A DNA stretch of 40,652 nucleotides, taken from positions 4,289 to 44,940 of IMG/VR virus record IMGVR_UViG_3300030419_003974; one strand, given 5' to 3'. This document shows positions 6,048 through 16,892 of the stretch, piece by piece. The notes under the pieces are model-generated. The model saw only the letters and a program-made list of their open reading frames with translations. It was not told the origin of the DNA and did no database searches. A program made the translations under genes and the position numbers. Origin of the DNA: a virus. Every line of letters begins with the position of its first letter. Position 1 is the stretch's first letter.

Positions 6048-6452
6048 ATGTCAACAAAAAAGAAAATAGAAAGACATTCATTTGTCGATGAAAATGGACA
6101 ACGATGGTTACAATGTAAGTATTGTTATGACTATAAAGAAGTCGAACCAGAAATTGGTGCTATAACTTGTGGGAATTGTGTTGTTAAGATAGATATGATA
6201 AAGTTTCCAGGAACTATAAAAAAACAAAAAGTATCGAGTGGTAGACCAGCAGGTTGGCATTTTATGAATGAGTATGTTGACAAAGATGGTAATGTGTTTC
6301 ATAAAGGTAAAGAACAACCTGACTTAAAGGGAACTCTTCCACCAACTAAAGTGAAACCAAGAAAGAAGAAAAAGAAATTATCAGCTGATGATAAATTAAA
6401 AAGAGATTTAGATAATTGGAAAAAAAGAAAAAGAGCAAGAAGGGGTAAATAG
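6048..6452 (+). CDS. Zinc-ribbon protein with basic tail
   Basis: WLQCKYCYDYKEVEP and AITCGNCVV give two CxxC knuckles about 20 residues apart, a typical zinc ribbon in the first 45 residues. The middle has HFMNEYVDKDGNVFHKGKEQ, and the last 40 residues are strongly basic (KVKPRKKKKKLSAD and RKRARRGK), which suggests nucleic-acid or ribosome binding. It is the first gene after the promoter at 6003 and overlaps the deformylase by one base (TAGTG). The product is hypothetical; pairing with a ribosome-linked enzyme is suggestive only. Confidence 0.65.
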   Translation: MSTKKKIERHSFVDENGQRWLQCKYCYDYKEVEPEIGAITCGNCVVKIDMIKFPGTIKKQKVSSGRPAGWHFMNEYVDKDGNVFHKGKEQPDLKGTLPPTKVKPRKKKKKLSADDKLKRDLDNWKKRKRARRGK

Positions 6453-7036
6453 TGATTATAAAAGATAAAAATAAACTAAAAGAAAAGTGTACACCTGTAT
6501 CTATAGAAGAAGGTGAAGAAATTGGTGTTAGATTATTACACGAATTAAGAGAATCGGAAAATGGTATTGGTTTGGCTGCAAATCAAATCGGTATCAATAA
6601 AAGAGTTTGTGTAATTAATGTAAAAGAACCATTGGTTTTAATCAATCCTAAAATAGTAAAACATTCAGAAGATAAATTTATATTTCCAGAGGGTTGTTTA
6701 TCCTTTCCTGATAAAAAAGTTAGAACTGCTAGATATAAAGATATAACTGTAGAAGCGGATAATCATAATGGTAAATTATTTTTTACAGCAGATAGTAAAG
6801 AAATAAATGATGCGTTTGAATGTGTTTGTGTTCAACACGAAATAGATCACCTTGATGGTATTACAATGTTTGATAGGGAGTTTAAACAAGAACCAATTGT
6901 TCGTGGTAAAAATGCTCCTGAAAAAATTGGTAGAAATACAAAAGTATTAATTAAAAAAGGTTCTGAAACAAAAACAATTAAATATAAAAAATTCAACAAA
7001 ATGTCGGAGGATGGATGGGTATTAGCAGAAGTATAA
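6452..7036 (+). CDS. def: Peptide deformylase
   Basis: All three deformylase motifs are present: GIGLAANQIG (38-47), EGCLS (80-84, metal-ligand Cys) and QHEIDH (HExxH 129-133). The enzyme removes the formyl group from the initiator Met of new proteins. Phage versions are common in marine T4-like phages and are thought to support synthesis of phage or photosystem proteins. At 194 aa it carries about 45 residues beyond the usual core, starting QEPIVRGKNAPEK and rich in Lys. The start is GTG, placed by the TAGTG overlap with the zinc-ribbon gene. Confidence 0.95.
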   Translation: MIIKDKNKLKEKCTPVSIEEGEEIGVRLLHELRESENGIGLAANQIGINKRVCVINVKEPLVLINPKIVKHSEDKFIFPEGCLSFPDKKVRTARYKDITVEADNHNGKLFFTADSKEINDAFECVCVQHEIDHLDGITMFDREFKQEPIVRGKNAPEKIGRNTKVLIKKGSETKTIKYKKFNKMSEDGWVLAEV

Positions 7037-9844: not shown

Positions 9845-9874
9845 TTGACTTATATTGTATAAATTAGTTATATT
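9845..9874 (+). promoter_or_regulatory. Promoter, TTGACT-N18-TATATT
   Basis: TTGACT (9845-9850) and TATATT (9869-9874) are 18 nt apart, preceded by AAAAAAAAGC as at 6003. The ATG at 9903 follows with an ordinary leader containing GGAG at 9892-9895. Confidence 0.8.
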
Positions 9875-11234: not shown

Positions 11235-11264
11235 TTGACTCATATGCAAATTTATTCTTATATT
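11235..11264 (+). promoter_or_regulatory. Promoter, TTGACT-N18-TATATT, adjoining the start codon
   Basis: TTGACT (11235-11240), 18 nt, TATATT (11259-11264), then only 5 nt (AAACT) before ATG 11270. This is the head of the 11270-16862 operon. The -10 to ATG spacing of 5 nt is identical to that at 545 and 1316, and no ribosome site exists, so the transcript is probably leaderless. Confidence 0.8.
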
Positions 11265-11269
11265 AAACT

Positions 11270-12383
11270 ATGTTAAATAATTTTTTCGATATAAAAGACG
11301 ATTTTAATTTTGATACAGAGAAACAAAACTTTGTTGATAATCTTGATATGCTGAAATCAATGTCAGTTCAAGAATCTACTTTATATAAAAAATGGCAGGA
11401 ATTTAATAAAGATGAATATAAGATGAGAACTAAAGCTCATAAGTTTGATATTATCAAATCTAAACTTTGGAAACCAACCGATATCTACAACTATGACTTG
11501 ACTGTAAAGGAGATTCAATCTCTCGAACCAATTGTTGAGTTTACTAAAGATGCTGAAACTTGGACTATAGTCAGAAAACTAATTCACACAATGGATTGGA
11601 ATGCTAATCCAGGTAGAAATCAGAAATATTATGTTAAAGATAAGAATACAGGTAAAATACTTGGATTAATATCTTTAGGTTCAGATGTGACAACAATTAA
11701 AGTTAGAGATGATTACATTGGTTGGAAGAAAGATGACAAGTTTGTTGAACACAAATTAAATAATACAGCTATCGCTTCTACAATAGTTTGTGTTCAACCA
11801 CTTGGATTCAATATGTTAGGTGGTAAACTAATCGCAGCTCTTACCACTTGTTCAGATGTCAGGAATCAATGGAAGAAAGATTATGGCGATACATTAGTTG
11901 GTGTTACTACAACATCATTGTATGGAGCTCACTCTCAATACAATGGAATCCCACATTGGAAAACACTTGGTGAATCAGCTGGTAAGAAAATGGTTAAAAG
12001 AAAATCATCCAGAAGAACATCACAAGGCTGTTACAACAACAGGCCCTAAACAAAATGTTATCAACAGAATATTTAAACATCTTGAAATCAAAGGTAAAGA
12101 TTATGAACACGGATTCAAACGAGGTGTGTTCTTTGCTAATATGTATGAGAATGGTTTAGAGTATTTAAGAAATGAAATAGAAGATAAAGATTTAGTAATG
12201 AAACAAAAATATGTTTTGGATTATGATAGAATTAATTCTTGGTGGAAACCAAAAGCTATCAGAAGATACACAACATTATTTAATGATAATAGAATTAAAC
12301 CTGAGACATTATTTTATGGTGATGTAGTTGGAATGACTTGGGAACAATGTAAAGAAAAATACCTAAAGGAGGTAGGAAGATAG
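11270..12383 (+). CDS. DUF4338 (DruA-like) protein, interrupted by a +1 frameshift
   Basis: Frame 1 (from 11270) contains GKILGLISLGSDVTTIKVRD, YIGWKKDD, IVCVQPLGFNMLGGKLIAAL and TSLYGAHSQYNG followed by HWKTLGESAGK. These match the DUF4338 family, which includes DruA of the Druantia anti-phage system. After GKK at 11989 this frame degenerates and stops at 12049. The frame one base ahead continues sensibly from W (TGG 11991) as KENHPEEHHKAV and then to a stop at 12381-12383. Skipping one A of the AAAA run at 11987-11990 restores a 370-aa protein. This could be a sequencing or assembly error, a real mutation, or programmed +1 shifting. Biochemical role in phages unknown. Confidence 0.7.
12365..12373 (+). 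promoter_or_regulatory. Strong Shine-Dalgarno for the GTG-start DUF262 gene
   Basis: AAAGGAGGT, near-perfect complement of the 16S 3' end, lies 9 nt before GTG 12383 while the upstream frame is still being read. It fixes GTG as the start and suggests high translation. Confidence 0.85.
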
Positions 12384-13774
12384 TGGAATATAGAAAACAA
12401 AAAAACAAATATGACCAAGATTTAGAAACATATGTAGAAAGAAAAATAGGATTAGATTTAAGTTTTCAATCTAAAGGTAGATGGTCAGAATCGGATGAAG
12501 AGGATTTATTTGTAAGTTTAATGGAAGGTGATGTTATATCACAACATGTTTTAGTAAATTTAGAAAAGGCTTCAGTTAACGCTGAAAAAGAAACATCAAA
12601 AAAACTATTTAAAAAACATATGAAAAAAGGTTCAACTGATTTATCAATTGATAGTAATAATAGAAATCAAACATATAAAAAGATTATGAGTGATGAAAGA
12701 ATGTTAAGACCTGGTACATATTTGGATTTGAATGATAATGAATATATTATAAATGAAAAAACACCATTTAGTAAATTACCTAAACCATTACAAATGGTGA
12801 TTCGTAACTATCCAATACCCGTAGTAGAGTATACAAAAATTGAAAGACGGGGTTGTAAAAATGTATTTAAAAGAGTTAATAAAGGTGTTAACTTAAATGA
12901 CCAAGAACAGAGAAATGCTGAGGCTTCAGACATAGCCGAATATGTAAGAAACTATGCTACAAAATATGAAGATACATTTAAAACATTTATGTCAGATAAA
13001 AAAATAATGAGGAGAGGAAACGACCAGTTAATCGCTCAATGTGTTTATTTAGAGGCTATAGGAAATGAAACTAACCCATCAAACGCTCCACTAAATCAGA
13101 TGTATAATCCAGATGACGCTCGTGGAGTTGTGTTAACTAAATCTTGGAATAACACAGAAAAAATATTAAATAAAATTATGAAAATGATTAAAGATAATAA
13201 GTCACAGATAGAAGACAACTTTAAAGGTGTATCTTGGTTTATTGATTTATATAATTTTATATCTTATTTATCAAAAAATAATTTTAGAATTGATAATAAT
13301 AATGAATTATTTATTTGGTTTACGGATTCTCAAGTTGATAGAATAGGTAGTACTGAAGTTCTTTATGAGTGGATTACTAAACCTAAAGGTAAAAAACCAT
13401 ATACAATTAAAGAAACATTTCAATCTATGAGTGGTTCACAAAAAGATTTTTGTTTAATAAATAGAAATGAAAAAATTTTATATGATTTTTATAATACTTC
13501 AAACCTAATTGGAAATGGTATAGTATTTCAAATACCATCTGATGATTATTTTACTTATCAAGATAAATTAGAATTATGGAAAAGACAAGATGGTTTCGCG
13601 TATTGTCCAAAAACAAATAAACCTACAGATGTAAAAATACCAAAGGTTGAATTATTTAATTTTAAAAAATGGCAGGCTGATGCTATTATTCCAAGAGGAA
13701 GAAGTGGATACCATACTCTTGATAATGGACAATTAACAAGTGCATCAGACAACCAATCAGCGGGGTTAAAATAA
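12383..13774 (+). CDS. DUF262 (GmrSD-like) protein with degenerate HNH end
   Basis: Residues about 30-185 follow the DUF262 plan: GRWSESDEEDLFVSLMEGD, then IDSNNRNQT in place of the DGQQR-T loop, LPKPLQMVIRNYPIPVVEY, and VFKRVNKGVNLNDQEQRNAE (R-N-x-x-x-x-Q-E-x-R-N-A). The last 60 residues resemble an HNH nuclease end: QADAIIPRG, then YHTLDNGQL and SDNQSAG. The usual catalytic DH of that motif is DA (A434), and only one Cys is present. GmrSD-type proteins are type IV enzymes that restrict glucosylated DNA. Here the nuclease may be dead. GTG start, TAGTG overlap with the gene before and TAATG with the glycosyltransferase after. Confidence 0.7.
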   Translation: MEYRKQKNKYDQDLETYVERKIGLDLSFQSKGRWSESDEEDLFVSLMEGDVISQHVLVNLEKASVNAEKETSKKLFKKHMKKGSTDLSIDSNNRNQTYKKIMSDERMLRPGTYLDLNDNEYIINEKTPFSKLPKPLQMVIRNYPIPVVEYTKIERRGCKNVFKRVNKGVNLNDQEQRNAEASDIAEYVRNYATKYEDTFKTFMSDKKIMRRGNDQLIAQCVYLEAIGNETNPSNAPLNQMYNPDDARGVVLTKSWNNTEKILNKIMKMIKDNKSQIEDNFKGVSWFIDLYNFISYLSKNNFRIDNNNELFIWFTDSQVDRIGSTEVLYEWITKPKGKKPYTIKETFQSMSGSQKDFCLINRNEKILYDFYNTSNLIGNGIVFQIPSDDYFTYQDKLELWKRQDGFAYCPKTNKPTDVKIPKVELFNFKKWQADAIIPRGRSGYHTLDNGQLTSASDNQSAGLK

Positions 13775-15111
13775 TGAATATATTAAACTTTACAAATGAT
13801 ATTGAAATGGATAAAGAATATAAATATAAAATTCTTGTATATCCAAATATTACATATCAGAAAGATTTAGAAAAAGATTCTTATGTTATTGTTCTCGGTA
13901 ATATAATAAGAGAGTTAAATAAGATTCGAGATGATATTCATTGGACTATATTATCGCCTGGTGGTGAAATAGGTAGTTTATCTTTCGAGAATACAAACCA
14001 ACTTCCGATAGAATTTCCACCATACCCAAACGCTATGAGGTTACATTTTAATCAAAAACAAATTATAAAACAAATTGATTTTAGAAAAAATGATTTTGAT
14101 ATTGTGTACTCTCATTTACCTGAACATACTTTACAATTAAAAAATTTATTTTTAAATGAAACAAATATAGAACCAAAATTTATTGGTTATACTCATTGGA
14201 CAGAATTTCCAGAAATAACAAATTATGCAATGACAGTAATGGATATAAATTTTTTAGGTTTATTAGAAATGGAAAAATGTGGTATTAATACACAAGGACA
14301 GAAAGATTTGATACTAAAAAATGCTAAAACTAATTTTAATGATAATGTTGTAAATAGATTAGATAATATTTTAGAACCACAATATCTTGGTTGGGAAATT
14401 CCAAAATATGAAAAACAAACAACTGATAAAAAAATAATTGTCTTTAATCACAGACCACATAAGTATAAAAACTACGATTGGTTTTTAAAACAAATGGATA
14501 AAATATGGGAGTATAGACAAGACTTTGAAGTGTGGGTGCCACTAACTGATTCAGTTACAAAACCATATATGACAAATGATAAATATGATAGAGTTGGATA
14601 CTTCTCTAAACTATCAAGTTGTTGTGTTGGTGTTTGTGCTAAACAGCGTTACGCTGGTTGGGCTGTATCTGCGACTGATGGTATGAGTGTTGGTGTCCCT
14701 TATTTATTTTATGATGACGGATACTATAGAGAACTAGCAGGTGATGCTGGAATATATTATAAAGAAGAAAAGTTTGAAGAAACTATAAATGAAATATTAG
14801 ATAATCCCACAATAAGAGACAAGTGGTCTGATAAATCATTAAAAAGATTTGATAATGGAAAATGGGAAAATGCTATTAAACCATTTAACAAAATGATAAA
14901 TGAGACAATTGACAATCTACCAACTTTAAAAAGTGATACGGATACATATAAAAAAGTTGTTGACTTTATCCATAAAAAAGGTTCTGTATCTAAAGCTGAC
15001 ATTCTTAACTTTCTAAATTGGGGTGTAAGAATATCATTTAGTGGGTATAGAAATAGATTAAGAAAAGAACCAACAATAAAATTTACAAAAAATAGGTATG
15101 AGGTAAAATGA
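13774..15111 (+). CDS. GT-B glycosyltransferase with extra C-terminal domain
   Basis: The 445-aa chain has a two-lobed GT-B layout. The donor lobe contains KIIVFNHRPHKYKNYDWFL and the GT4-like signature GWAVSATDGMSVGVPYLFYD followed by YYREL and DAGIYY; the second Glu of the E-x7-E pattern is kept (RE), while the first is Asp. Residues about 400-445 (SVSKADILNFLNW, then SGYRNRLRKEP and FTKNRYEVK) look like a small helix-turn-helix or winged domain that could bind DNA. That fusion suggests DNA-base glycosylation, as in T-even phages, but a surface-sugar role cannot be excluded. It is coupled to the DUF262 gene and, by ATGA, to the HD gene. Confidence 0.75.
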   Translation: MNILNFTNDIEMDKEYKYKILVYPNITYQKDLEKDSYVIVLGNIIRELNKIRDDIHWTILSPGGEIGSLSFENTNQLPIEFPPYPNAMRLHFNQKQIIKQIDFRKNDFDIVYSHLPEHTLQLKNLFLNETNIEPKFIGYTHWTEFPEITNYAMTVMDINFLGLLEMEKCGINTQGQKDLILKNAKTNFNDNVVNRLDNILEPQYLGWEIPKYEKQTTDKKIIVFNHRPHKYKNYDWFLKQMDKIWEYRQDFEVWVPLTDSVTKPYMTNDKYDRVGYFSKLSSCCVGVCAKQRYAGWAVSATDGMSVGVPYLFYDDGYYRELAGDAGIYYKEEKFEETINEILDNPTIRDKWSDKSLKRFDNGKWENAIKPFNKMINETIDNLPTLKSDTDTYKKVVDFIHKKGSVSKADILNFLNWGVRISFSGYRNRLRKEPTIKFTKNRYEVK

Positions 15112-15851
15112 AAAAATTAACAGCAGAACAAATACAAATGAATTGGGAAACACTAATGGATATTATTAACAAACACATTAGTGAAGATAGAAAAGAAAAT
15201 CTTATAAAGATGTATGATGACTTCAAAGATAGAATGATGTTTGCACCAGCGAGTGCTAAGGCAGCATTTCACAATGCGATGCCAGGTGGATATGTTGAAC
15301 ACATTCTTCACATTGTAAATCATTCACTTCAATTAAAAGAGTTGTGGGAAAAGAATGGAGCAATGATTAACTTTACAGATGAAGAGTTAGTGTTTGCAGC
15401 TTTACATCACGACTTGGGTAAGGTTGGAGATTTAGAACACGATTACTATGTTCCACAAGATTCAGATTGGCATAGAAAAAATCGTGGTGAGATTTATAAA
15501 CACAATCCACAACTTCAGTATATGAAAGTACCTGATAGAGGGTTGTGGTTACTTCAACACTATGGTGTCAAGGTTACGGATAAAGAATATATTGGAATTA
15601 AATTAACAGATGGTTTGTATGATGATGCTAATACAGCTTATTTAAAGTCATACAATCCTGATTACAATCTTCGTTCCAATATGGCTTACATCTTACACCA
15701 AGCTGATATGATGGCGACTCATATTGAGTTCGACCAATGGAACAGAAGTGATGAGGTTGAAGAACCAATAAATACAAAAGTTCCAAAAACAAAAAATGAA
15801 CAGAAACAAGTAGACAACTTGAAATCAAAATTTGATGAGTTGTTTAATTAG
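15108..15851 (+). CDS. HD-domain phosphohydrolase (YhaM-like)
   Basis: PASAKAAFHNAMPGGYVEHI (HD-family entry with H65), ALHHDLGKVGD (catalytic H101-D102 pair) and a later YILHQADMMATH give the metal-binding set of HD hydrolases. The residues before the first His resemble the nuclease domain of YhaM, a 3'-5' exonuclease, but the OB domain of YhaM is missing and the length is only 247 aa. It may cut nucleotides or nucleic acid; the substrate is open. It starts within the glycosyltransferase stop codon (ATGA). Confidence 0.8.
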   Translation: MKKLTAEQIQMNWETLMDIINKHISEDRKENLIKMYDDFKDRMMFAPASAKAAFHNAMPGGYVEHILHIVNHSLQLKELWEKNGAMINFTDEELVFAALHHDLGKVGDLEHDYYVPQDSDWHRKNRGEIYKHNPQLQYMKVPDRGLWLLQHYGVKVTDKEYIGIKLTDGLYDDANTAYLKSYNPDYNLRSNMAYILHQADMMATHIEFDQWNRSDEVEEPINTKVPKTKNEQKQVDNLKSKFDELFN

Positions 15852-15859
15852 GAGATATT

Positions 15860-16138
15860 ATGTGGATAGGTTTAACAATATTATTTTTCTTAATTAGTAT
15901 CTTTACATCTTTATTGGTGTATTACTCTTTACGAAGAATAACACAATATGAAGAATTGATTTTAGAAATTCAACAAGTGATTAAATTCTCAACAGATAAA
16001 ATGAAACTTGTTGACGCTAAAGGACATTATGAATCAGATGATGAGACTGGTTTTTTCTTTGAACAATTAAAACAAATACAATTATCTCTTGATGGGATAT
16101 TTGAAGAGGAGACAACAAATGCCAAAAAAGAAAACTAA
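15860..16138 (+). CDS. Membrane-anchored small protein (92 aa)
   Basis: One N-terminal membrane helix (residues 2-23, WIGLTILFFLISIFTSLLVY) is followed by a soluble helical part with heptad-like spacing (ITQYEELILEIQQVIKF) and an acidic end. TTAGGAG precedes the ATG. It overlaps the sigma-factor gene by 20 nt. Similar TM-plus-coil proteins are common next to sigma-like genes in T4-like marine phages as far as I recall; no role can be given from sequence. Confidence 0.65.
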   Translation: MWIGLTILFFLISIFTSLLVYYSLRRITQYEELILEIQQVIKFSTDKMKLVDAKGHYESDDETGFFFEQLKQIQLSLDGIFEEETTNAKKEN

Positions 16139-16868: not shown

Positions 16869-16892
16869 AACCCTCTTAAATGAGGGTTTTTT
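16869..16892 (+). terminator. Rho-independent terminator after the sigma-factor gene
   Basis: AACCCTC (16869-16875) pairs with GAGGGTT (16882-16888) around TTAAAT, with a T-run to 16892. It closes the 11270-16862 operon. Confidence 0.9.

What the first reader, a model, noticed from the sequence alone, without database searches (positions are those of the whole stretch)
11235..15111. Candidate system: DUF4338 + DUF262/HNH-like + glycosyltransferase in one operon
Three genes with coupled starts share a promoter. DUF262-HNH proteins of the GmrSD type attack glucosylated DNA, and the gene directly after is a glycosyltransferase with what looks like a DNA-binding tail, so the pair may make and handle sugar-modified DNA. 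With a DruA-like protein at the head, the locus may exclude competing phages, protect the phage's own DNA, or both. The whole set is transcribed together with the late sigma factor. I know of no described system with these three parts.
Basis: inference. Interest (0 to 1): 0.8.

Follow-up and report, generated by a model that had tools for sequence, protein, structure and literature searches.

The report
Swappable DNA-modification/nuclease cassette in marine phages
In this marine T4-like virus of bacteria, a sugar-transferring enzyme and a DruA-family protein frame a slot in which related viruses keep swapping DNA-cutting and DNA-modifying genes, so the locus probably marks viral DNA and attacks unmarked DNA, although in this copy the DruA gene is broken and the cutter lacks its key histidine.

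Summary
The three genes are real, but the trio is one state of a variable locus. In 63 of 134 related phage loci the order is DruA – [slot] – glycosyltransferase (GT) – HD – sigma. In the other DruA loci with the junction visible, DruA runs straight into HD.

Slot genes are mainly DNA-handling: GmrSD-type DUF262+HNH, ParB+PD-(D/E)xK, GIY-YIG+ParB, Mom, DNA methyltransferases, TAGT, endonuclease VII. All 32 model-detected ParB/Srx-type nucleases in non-redundant GT-bearing loci lie in the slot.

Two phages with ~100% identical flanks differ from DruA's C-terminal half to exactly the GT stop. Other pairs keep the GT (up to 99%) and swap only the slot gene.

The window's druA has a 41-nt frameshifting deletion (94 other DruA ORFs are intact). 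The DUF262 protein is GmrSD-like (profile E=1e-19), but its HNH general-base His is Ala, shared by two orthologues, while nearly all of ~25 relatives keep it.

Best reading: a phage modification/restriction locus. GT and DruA (weakly GNAT-like) mark phage DNA, and the slot nuclease destroys unmarked competitor DNA. This copy may be impaired. Glycosylated DNA is unproven; no hydroxymethylase was found. Rivals: surface glycosylation, homing-endonuclease hotspot.

The parts
11235..11264 (+). promoter-like site TTGACT-N18-TATATT ahead of druA; same site ahead of the 3D-domain gene (9845-9874) and, in L011, ahead of the slot nuclease
   Evidence: two exact matches in window; up to 1 mismatch expected 1.4 by chance, so suggestive only
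11270..12049 (+). druA 5' part (DUF4338/DruA), truncated by frameshift: about 240 native residues that cover the predicted GNAT-like core, then a dozen or so aberrant ones
   Evidence: Pfam DruA 1.1e-17; structure of the intact relative L007 DruA, pLDDT 90, Foldseek hits nearly all GNAT acetyltransferases but weak, best E 6e-3
11987..11988 (.). junction of a 41-nt deletion relative to nine aligned relatives; causes the druA frameshift
   Evidence: 94 other DruA ORFs intact
12050..12383 (+). remainder of druA (C-terminal helical domain) in the shifted frame (mechanical ORF 11898-12383)
   Evidence: (DruA C-terminal part 0.018)
12365..12373 (+). Shine-Dalgarno-like AAAGGAGGT ahead of the DUF262 gene GTG start
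   Evidence: sequence
12383..13774 (+). GmrSD_N/DUF262-HNH protein (slot gene); motif DSNNR in place of DGQQR
   Evidence: hhalign vs slot GmrSD-HNH E=1.4e-19; alignments
13565..13771 (+). HNH domain with D-A-N-N in place of D-H-N-N; Ala codon 13682-13684
13774..15111 (+). GT-B (GT4-like) glycosyltransferase, constant member of the locus
   Evidence: >=566 relatives in IMG/VR, none among named phages by tblastn
14929..15108 (+). conserved C-terminal domain of the GT, winged-helix-like by predicted topology; found only in this GT family in the loci held
15108..15851 (+). HD-domain phosphohydrolase-like protein; constant right neighbour of the locus, also present when GT and slot are absent
   Evidence: PHROG metal-dependent phosphohydrolase 2.8e-13
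15860..16138 (+). small membrane-type protein in the same operon
   Evidence: no sigma family hit
16869..16888 (+). terminator-like hairpin with T tract

Best explanation
The locus is a phage-encoded DNA modification/restriction cassette of marine T4-like (Kyanoviridae-type) phages. The constant frame is DruA (weak GNAT-like fold, same broad fold class as the DNA-modifying Mom enzyme) and a GT-B glycosyltransferase with a winged-helix-like C-terminal domain. Together, or with Mom/TAGT/methyltransferase genes held in the same slot or elsewhere in the genome, they chemically mark phage DNA. The exchangeable slot gene is most often a ParB/Srx-fold protein fused to a nuclease domain (DUF262-HNH, ParB-PD-(D/E)xK, GIY-YIG-ParB), which would use its NTP-dependent ParB/Srx domain to check DNA and cut what lacks the mark, i.e. 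host DNA or the DNA of competing phages. The slot turns over fast because rivals adapt. In the window's copy the slot protein belongs to a clade whose HNH lost its general-base histidine yet stays conserved, so here it more likely binds or senses DNA, or assists the GT, than cuts; and DruA is truncated. Shown: anatomy, recurrence, cassette exchange, active-site states. Inferred: DNA as the GT substrate, DruA as a base acyltransferase, targeting of unmarked DNA.
For: Slot contents are mainly DNA modification/restriction families: GmrSD_N, HNH, ParB, GIY-YIG, Mom, TAGT, EndoVII, D12 and N6/N4 methylases. In non-redundant GT+ loci all 32 ParB/Srx-nuclease hits lie in the slot (84 kb) and none in 713 kb elsewhere. 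DruA loci without GT have DruA joined to HD (mostly 4-nt overlap) and no nuclease between. Slot gene and GT are translationally coupled. Cassette exchange: L011 vs L013, flanks ~100% identical, difference from DruA codon ~251 to the GT stop; slot-only exchange with GT 99.3% identical, L098/L099. DruA-GT adjacency persists at 31-39% identity in MAG contigs L146, L148. GIY-YIG and PD-(D/E)xK active-site residues are invariant. The own record also carries Mom (G000:C1:4-663). Literature parallel: jumbo-phage Mom fused to nucleases, interpreted as protection plus attack on host or superinfecting DNA (PMC7824862); DUF262-HNH proteins sense DNA marks (SspE PMC13251355; GmrSD PMC4619093; BrxU PMC13390438).
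Against: No known sugar acceptor base is made: no thymidylate-synthase/dCMP-hydroxymethylase family member in 21 records, and the TET/JBP search is uninformative. The GT's closest solved folds are small-molecule/cell-wall GTs (MshA, BshA). One GIY-YIG-ParB protein sits outside the slot in a GT-less locus (L048). GT and slot gene are not strictly cognate. DruA and Mom profiles do not align. The GT has no family-level link to T4 AGT/BGT. Some slot genes have no assigned function (e.g. L007, L138, L132), and one is a GHKL ATPase (L084).
Confidence: 0.5

Rival explanations
1. Homing-endonuclease hotspot: the slot is an insertion site between druA and the GT for selfish free-standing GIY-YIG/HNH/PD-(D/E)xK endonucleases; exchange of slot and flanks is homing with co-conversion, and the GT is a bystander.
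For: HNH, GIY-YIG and EndoVII domains are typical of phage homing enzymes (PHROG homing endonuclease 3e-7 for L009_9233); fast turnover; co-converted flanks in L011/L013; a stand-alone GIY-YIG-ParB protein in L048.
Against: The slot also holds Mom, Dam, N6/N4 methylases and TAGT, which are not homing enzymes; slot genes are translationally coupled to the GT; the equivalent DruA-HD junction without GT is not seen invaded by a nuclease; the ParB/Srx NTPase domain fused to each nuclease type is unusual for homing enzymes (general knowledge).
Confidence: 0.17
2. Surface glycosylation / superinfection exclusion: the GT modifies host LPS or another envelope sugar to stop other phages adsorbing; the DNA-acting slot genes are unrelated neighbours.
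For: Published view for pelagimyophage and cyanophage GTs (PMC7029224; PMC7824862); fold nearest to MshA/BshA/PimA-type GTs; a restriction system reported in only one of >100 SAR11 genomes (PMC7029224).
Against: Apparently soluble GT with a conserved winged-helix-like tail; constant neighbourhood with DruA and a DNA-modification/nuclease slot; TAGT (PHROG beta-glucosyl-HMC alpha-glucosyltransferase) occupies the same slot; the annotated neighbours are not sugar-nucleotide genes.
Confidence: 0.2
3. Anti-restriction only: DruA, GT and slot enzymes decorate phage DNA to evade host restriction; slot nucleases degrade the host chromosome for nucleotides rather than fight other phages.
For: T4-like phages use DNA sugars for evasion and nucleases for host DNA degradation (established); Mom, TAGT and methylases in the slot.
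Against: Rapid replacement of the nuclease type between near-identical phages fits diversifying conflict better than housekeeping host degradation; the ParB/Srx-type domain is kept across nuclease types.
Confidence: 0.13

Closest known systems
GmrSD / BrxU type IV restriction enzymes (PF03235 + HNH)
   Same: DUF262 domain with D-x-x-x-R motif plus C-terminal HNH; hhalign E=1.4e-19 with slot proteins that Pfam calls GmrSD_N
   Different: Phage-encoded and coupled to a GT; DSNNR instead of DGQQR; HNH general-base His replaced by Ala in the window clade
SspE (DUF262 + HNH effector of phosphorothioation systems)
   Same: DUF262-type domain coupled to HNH and linked to a DNA-marking enzyme set (PMC13251355)
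   Different: No Dnd/Ssp sulfur genes seen; marking enzymes here would be GT/DruA/Mom
Jumbo-phage Mom-nuclease systems (PMC7824862)
   Same: Phage-borne hypermodification enzyme with an endonuclease thought to attack host or superinfecting DNA; Mom itself occurs in this slot and in the window's own record
   Different: Separate, exchangeable nuclease gene of several fold types; GT and DruA as constant frame
Druantia DruA (DUF4338)
   Same: Domain family (Pfam 1.1e-17, PADLOC 3.9e-18); DruA-like proteins in Synechococcus phages already noted (PMC12774648)
   Different: No other Druantia component detected in the large window proteins tested; phage setting; paired with a GT
T4 alpha/beta-GT and TAGT DNA glycosyltransferases
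   Same: GT-B fold for AGT/BGT; TAGT occurs in the same slot in L009, L014, L100, L120
   Different: No sequence relation of the window GT to them found; no hydroxymethylpyrimidine pathway found

Membership tests
GmrSD type IV restriction enzymes | GmrSD_N/DUF262 domain | tested here: met
   Not called by Pfam directly, met by profile-profile comparison E=1.4e-19
GmrSD type IV restriction enzymes | DGQQR motif, conserved in nearly 100% (PMC4619093) | tested here: not met
   DSNNR in window, L029 and L064; DGNNR/DGGNR in most other relatives
GmrSD type IV restriction enzymes | HNH catalytic E/D-H-N-N with His as general base (PMC4619093) | tested here: not met
   D-A-N-N in window, L029 and L064; DH (or GH in L160) in the other relatives whose C-terminus is held
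GmrSD type IV restriction enzymes | NTP-dependent cleavage of modified DNA | not testable with these tools
   needs biochemistry
Druantia | DruA domain, intact | tested here: not met
   Domain present but gene truncated by a 41-nt deletion in this record
Druantia | DruE helicase or other Dru components nearby | tested here: not met
   No Druantia model hit in ten further window proteins, mostly the large ones, or in the slot proteins tested
DNA glycosyltransferase | GT catalytic fold | tested here: met
DNA glycosyltransferase | Modified-base acceptor pathway in the genome | tested here: inconclusive
   No PF00303 member in 21 records; TET control did not ring; records are fragments
DNA glycosyltransferase | Transfer of sugar to DNA | not testable with these tools
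   needs LC-MS
Mom (PF25680) DNA modification | DruA is sequence-related to Mom | tested here: not met
   hhalign probability 0.9%, 9 columns; fold hits only share the GNAT class, weakly
Phage restriction-modification cassette | Modification enzyme and nuclease genetically linked and co-transferred | tested here: met
   (linkage and co-transfer; that the GT is a modification enzyme is inferred)
Homing endonuclease insertion | Slot limited to homing-type nucleases | tested here: not met
   Mom, Dam, N6/N4 methylases and TAGT also occupy the slot

The most novel reading that the evidence does not exclude
A widespread phage 'plug-in' weapon: DruA acylates a base (Mom-like chemistry) to make a handle, the GT puts a sugar on that handle with no hydroxymethylcytosine, and the interchangeable ParB/Srx-nuclease reads the mark and destroys unmarked competitor DNA. 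In the window clade the nuclease domain has become a conserved catalytically silent reader that assists the GT.
Probability: 0.15. Interest if true: 0.85.

Novelty: new variant of a known kind. Interest (0 to 1): 0.62.

Why it matters
It points to a common but undescribed locus in abundant marine phages (at least 566 GT relatives in IMG/VR, no GT match in named phages by tblastn) where DNA-marking and DNA-cutting genes are swapped between otherwise near-identical genomes. That suggests phage-phage conflict fought with modification/restriction logic, even for hosts such as SAR11 that reportedly have almost no restriction systems. It also gives DruA, a defence protein of unclear chemistry, a testable partner, and it gathers many untested DUF262/ParB nucleases beside a candidate DNA glycosyltransferase.

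Tried and rejected
- Fixed three-gene DruA-DUF262-GT system: rejected, the middle gene is exchangeable.
- Single-base sequencing error in druA: rejected; it is a 41-nt deletion. A chimeric or faulty assembly of that stretch cannot be excluded without reads.
- DruA as a Mom relative by sequence: rejected; only a weak common GNAT fold.
- hmC-based glucosylation as in T4: no hydroxymethylase family member found; TET search uninformative.
- GT recognised as a DNA GT by sequence or fold: not possible; the best PDB matches are metabolic GTs; the BFVD list includes Bacillus phage SP-15 GTs and one annotated DNA alpha-glucosyltransferase but does not discriminate.
- C-terminal GT domain as a known HTH family: Pfam gives nothing significant; not seen in other proteins of the loci.
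- Direct search for the window DUF262 protein in IMG/VR with a single sequence failed; the alignment search worked.
- Strictly cognate GT-nuclease pairs: not supported.
Full report
WHAT IS THERE. The window is part (4289-44940) of a 44,940-base IMG/VR viral record from a T4-like marine phage; the closest named DruA relatives are Pelagibacter phages HTVC008M and Mosig (41% and 37%). The reported genes are present: DruA/DUF4338 from 11270 (PF14236 1.1e-17), a 463-aa protein at 12383-13774, and a GT at 13774-15111 (PF00534 3.4e-7). They precede an HD protein, a small membrane-type protein and the putative late sigma-factor gene, with 1- to 4-nt overlaps at the main junctions, a promoter-like site at 11235-11264 and a terminator-like hairpin at 16869-16888.

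DRUA IS BROKEN IN THIS RECORD. The DruA frame ends at 12049 and continues in another frame to 12383. Aligned with nine relatives, the window lacks 41 nt at 11987/11988; 94 other DruA ORFs in the collected loci are intact. The truncation keeps the predicted GNAT-like core and loses the C-terminal helical domain (AF2 of the L007 protein, pLDDT 90). The fold match to GNAT acetyltransferases is consistent but weak (best Foldseek E 6e-3). DruA and Mom profiles do not align.

THE MIDDLE GENE. Pfam does not recognise it, but its profile aligns with slot proteins that Pfam calls GmrSD_N over 352 columns at E=1.4e-19, and its C-terminus matches Cas9-type HNH domains at 7e-7. In the window and its two orthologues (L029, L064; about 52% identical) the HNH reads D-A-N-N: the general-base His is Ala. 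Nearly all of about 25 more distant relatives keep DH, one having GH. By eye the segment is more conserved between window and L029 (26 of 36 residues) than the whole protein (51%), so it is under constraint rather than decaying. The published role of that His as general base in GmrD is from PMC4619093. The DGQQR motif is DSNNR here.

THE GLYCOSYLTRANSFERASE. It is a GT-B, GT4-like enzyme (AF2 pLDDT 84, Foldseek MshA 3e-14) with a conserved C-terminal domain of winged-helix-like topology found only in this GT family among the loci held. At least 566 relatives exist in IMG/VR and none in 50,697 phage records by tblastn.

THE LOCUS IN RELATIVES. From 134 loci that hold DruA or GT, 63 show DruA – [slot] – GT, usually followed by HD and sigma; DruA loci without GT have DruA joined to HD, mostly with the same 4-nt overlap, sometimes with a tandem DruA or Mom genes between. 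Slot proteins fall in many unrelated families: GmrSD_N-HNH (L005/L013, L006, L086, L097, L100), ParB + PD-(D/E)xK with invariant D, E, K, GIY-YIG + ParB-like with invariant Y, YxG, E, N, Mom, TAGT, D12 Dam, N6/N4 methylases, EndoVII, a GHKL ATPase, extra GTs; several have no match. With profile models on non-redundant loci, 32 of 32 ParB/Srx-nuclease hits in GT+ loci lie in the slot and none in 713 kb outside it. Two hits scored as 'slot(GT-)' are on contigs whose GT lies at or beyond the cut (L062, L026/L066); one true exception lies outside the slot in a GT-less locus (L048).

CASSETTE EXCHANGE. L011 and L013 are nearly identical for 8.7 kb upstream and for about 2.5 kb downstream, yet differ from DruA codon ~251 through the slot to exactly the GT stop: ParB-REase in one, Mom + EndoVII + GmrSD-HNH in the other, GTs clearly diverged. 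The left breakpoint falls at the boundary of the DruA core and C-terminal domain. Other pairs keep the GT at 90-99% identity and swap only the slot gene (L098/L099, L082/L084, L115/L116). So DruA C-terminus, slot and GT can move as a unit, but GT and slot gene are not obligate partners. DruA-GT adjacency persists in distant MAG contigs (L146, L148; 31-39% identity).

HOW IT MOST LIKELY WORKS. Shown: anatomy, recurrence, exchange, active-site states. Inferred: DruA and GT (with Mom or TAGT where present; the own record carries Mom at G000:C1:4-663) mark phage DNA, and the slot ParB/Srx-nuclease, when intact, cuts unmarked DNA of host or competitors. The same logic was proposed for Mom-nuclease fusions of jumbo phages (PMC7824862), and DUF262-HNH proteins that read DNA marks are known (SspE PMC13251355; BrxU PMC13390438). 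In this window the cutter lacks its general base and DruA is truncated, so this copy is either partly inactivated or has become a non-cutting reader.

WHAT SPEAKS AGAINST. No acceptor-base pathway was found (uninformative). The fold is closest to metabolic GTs. The published default for pelagimyophage GTs is LPS modification (PMC7029224). Some slot genes could be homing enzymes. All data are sequence-based and the contigs are metagenomic fragments.

Noticed in passing
G000:C1:4-663 (just upstream of the window; L181 1-732): The window's own record encodes a Mom-family (PF25680, 3.5e-49) DNA-modification protein; Mom occurs in 18 of 41 related records, up to four matches in one (G004).
   Followed up: partly
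L030, L031, L033, L034, L057, L058: In GT-less loci DruA is often followed by a second, diverged DruA (360-363 aa, about 38% identical to the first), in L033 with two Mom genes between them.
   Followed up: partly
L009 10660-11463, L014 4737-5558, L100 3-752, L120 504-1316: TAGT-type (TET-associated) glycosyltransferases sit in the DruA-GT slot, next to the GT4-type enzyme.
   Followed up: partly
window 9845-9874, 11235-11264; L011 9171-9202: Recurrent TTGACT-N18-TATATT promoter-like site ahead of the 3D-domain gene, druA and one slot nuclease; possibly the phage's own promoter class.
   Followed up: partly
L001 (Synechococcus phage Sf-FS3) 9686-11173 and L163, L166-L176: Stand-alone DUF262-HNH relatives with intact DH motif in cyanophage-like contigs, not next to this GT.
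   Followed up: no
L007 9199-11274, L063, L117, L127, L138 slot proteins (499-691 aa): Large slot proteins without any convincing family match; some C-termini show DGH/GDH motifs that may be very divergent HNH domains.
   Followed up: no
L084 239-1867: GHKL/HSP90-type ATPase (PF13589 6.7e-14) occupies the slot, unlike the DNA-acting genes elsewhere.
   Followed up: no
window 6452-7036: Phage peptide deformylase (PHROG 3.8e-33), also next to DruA in Pelagibacter phage Mosig.
   Followed up: no
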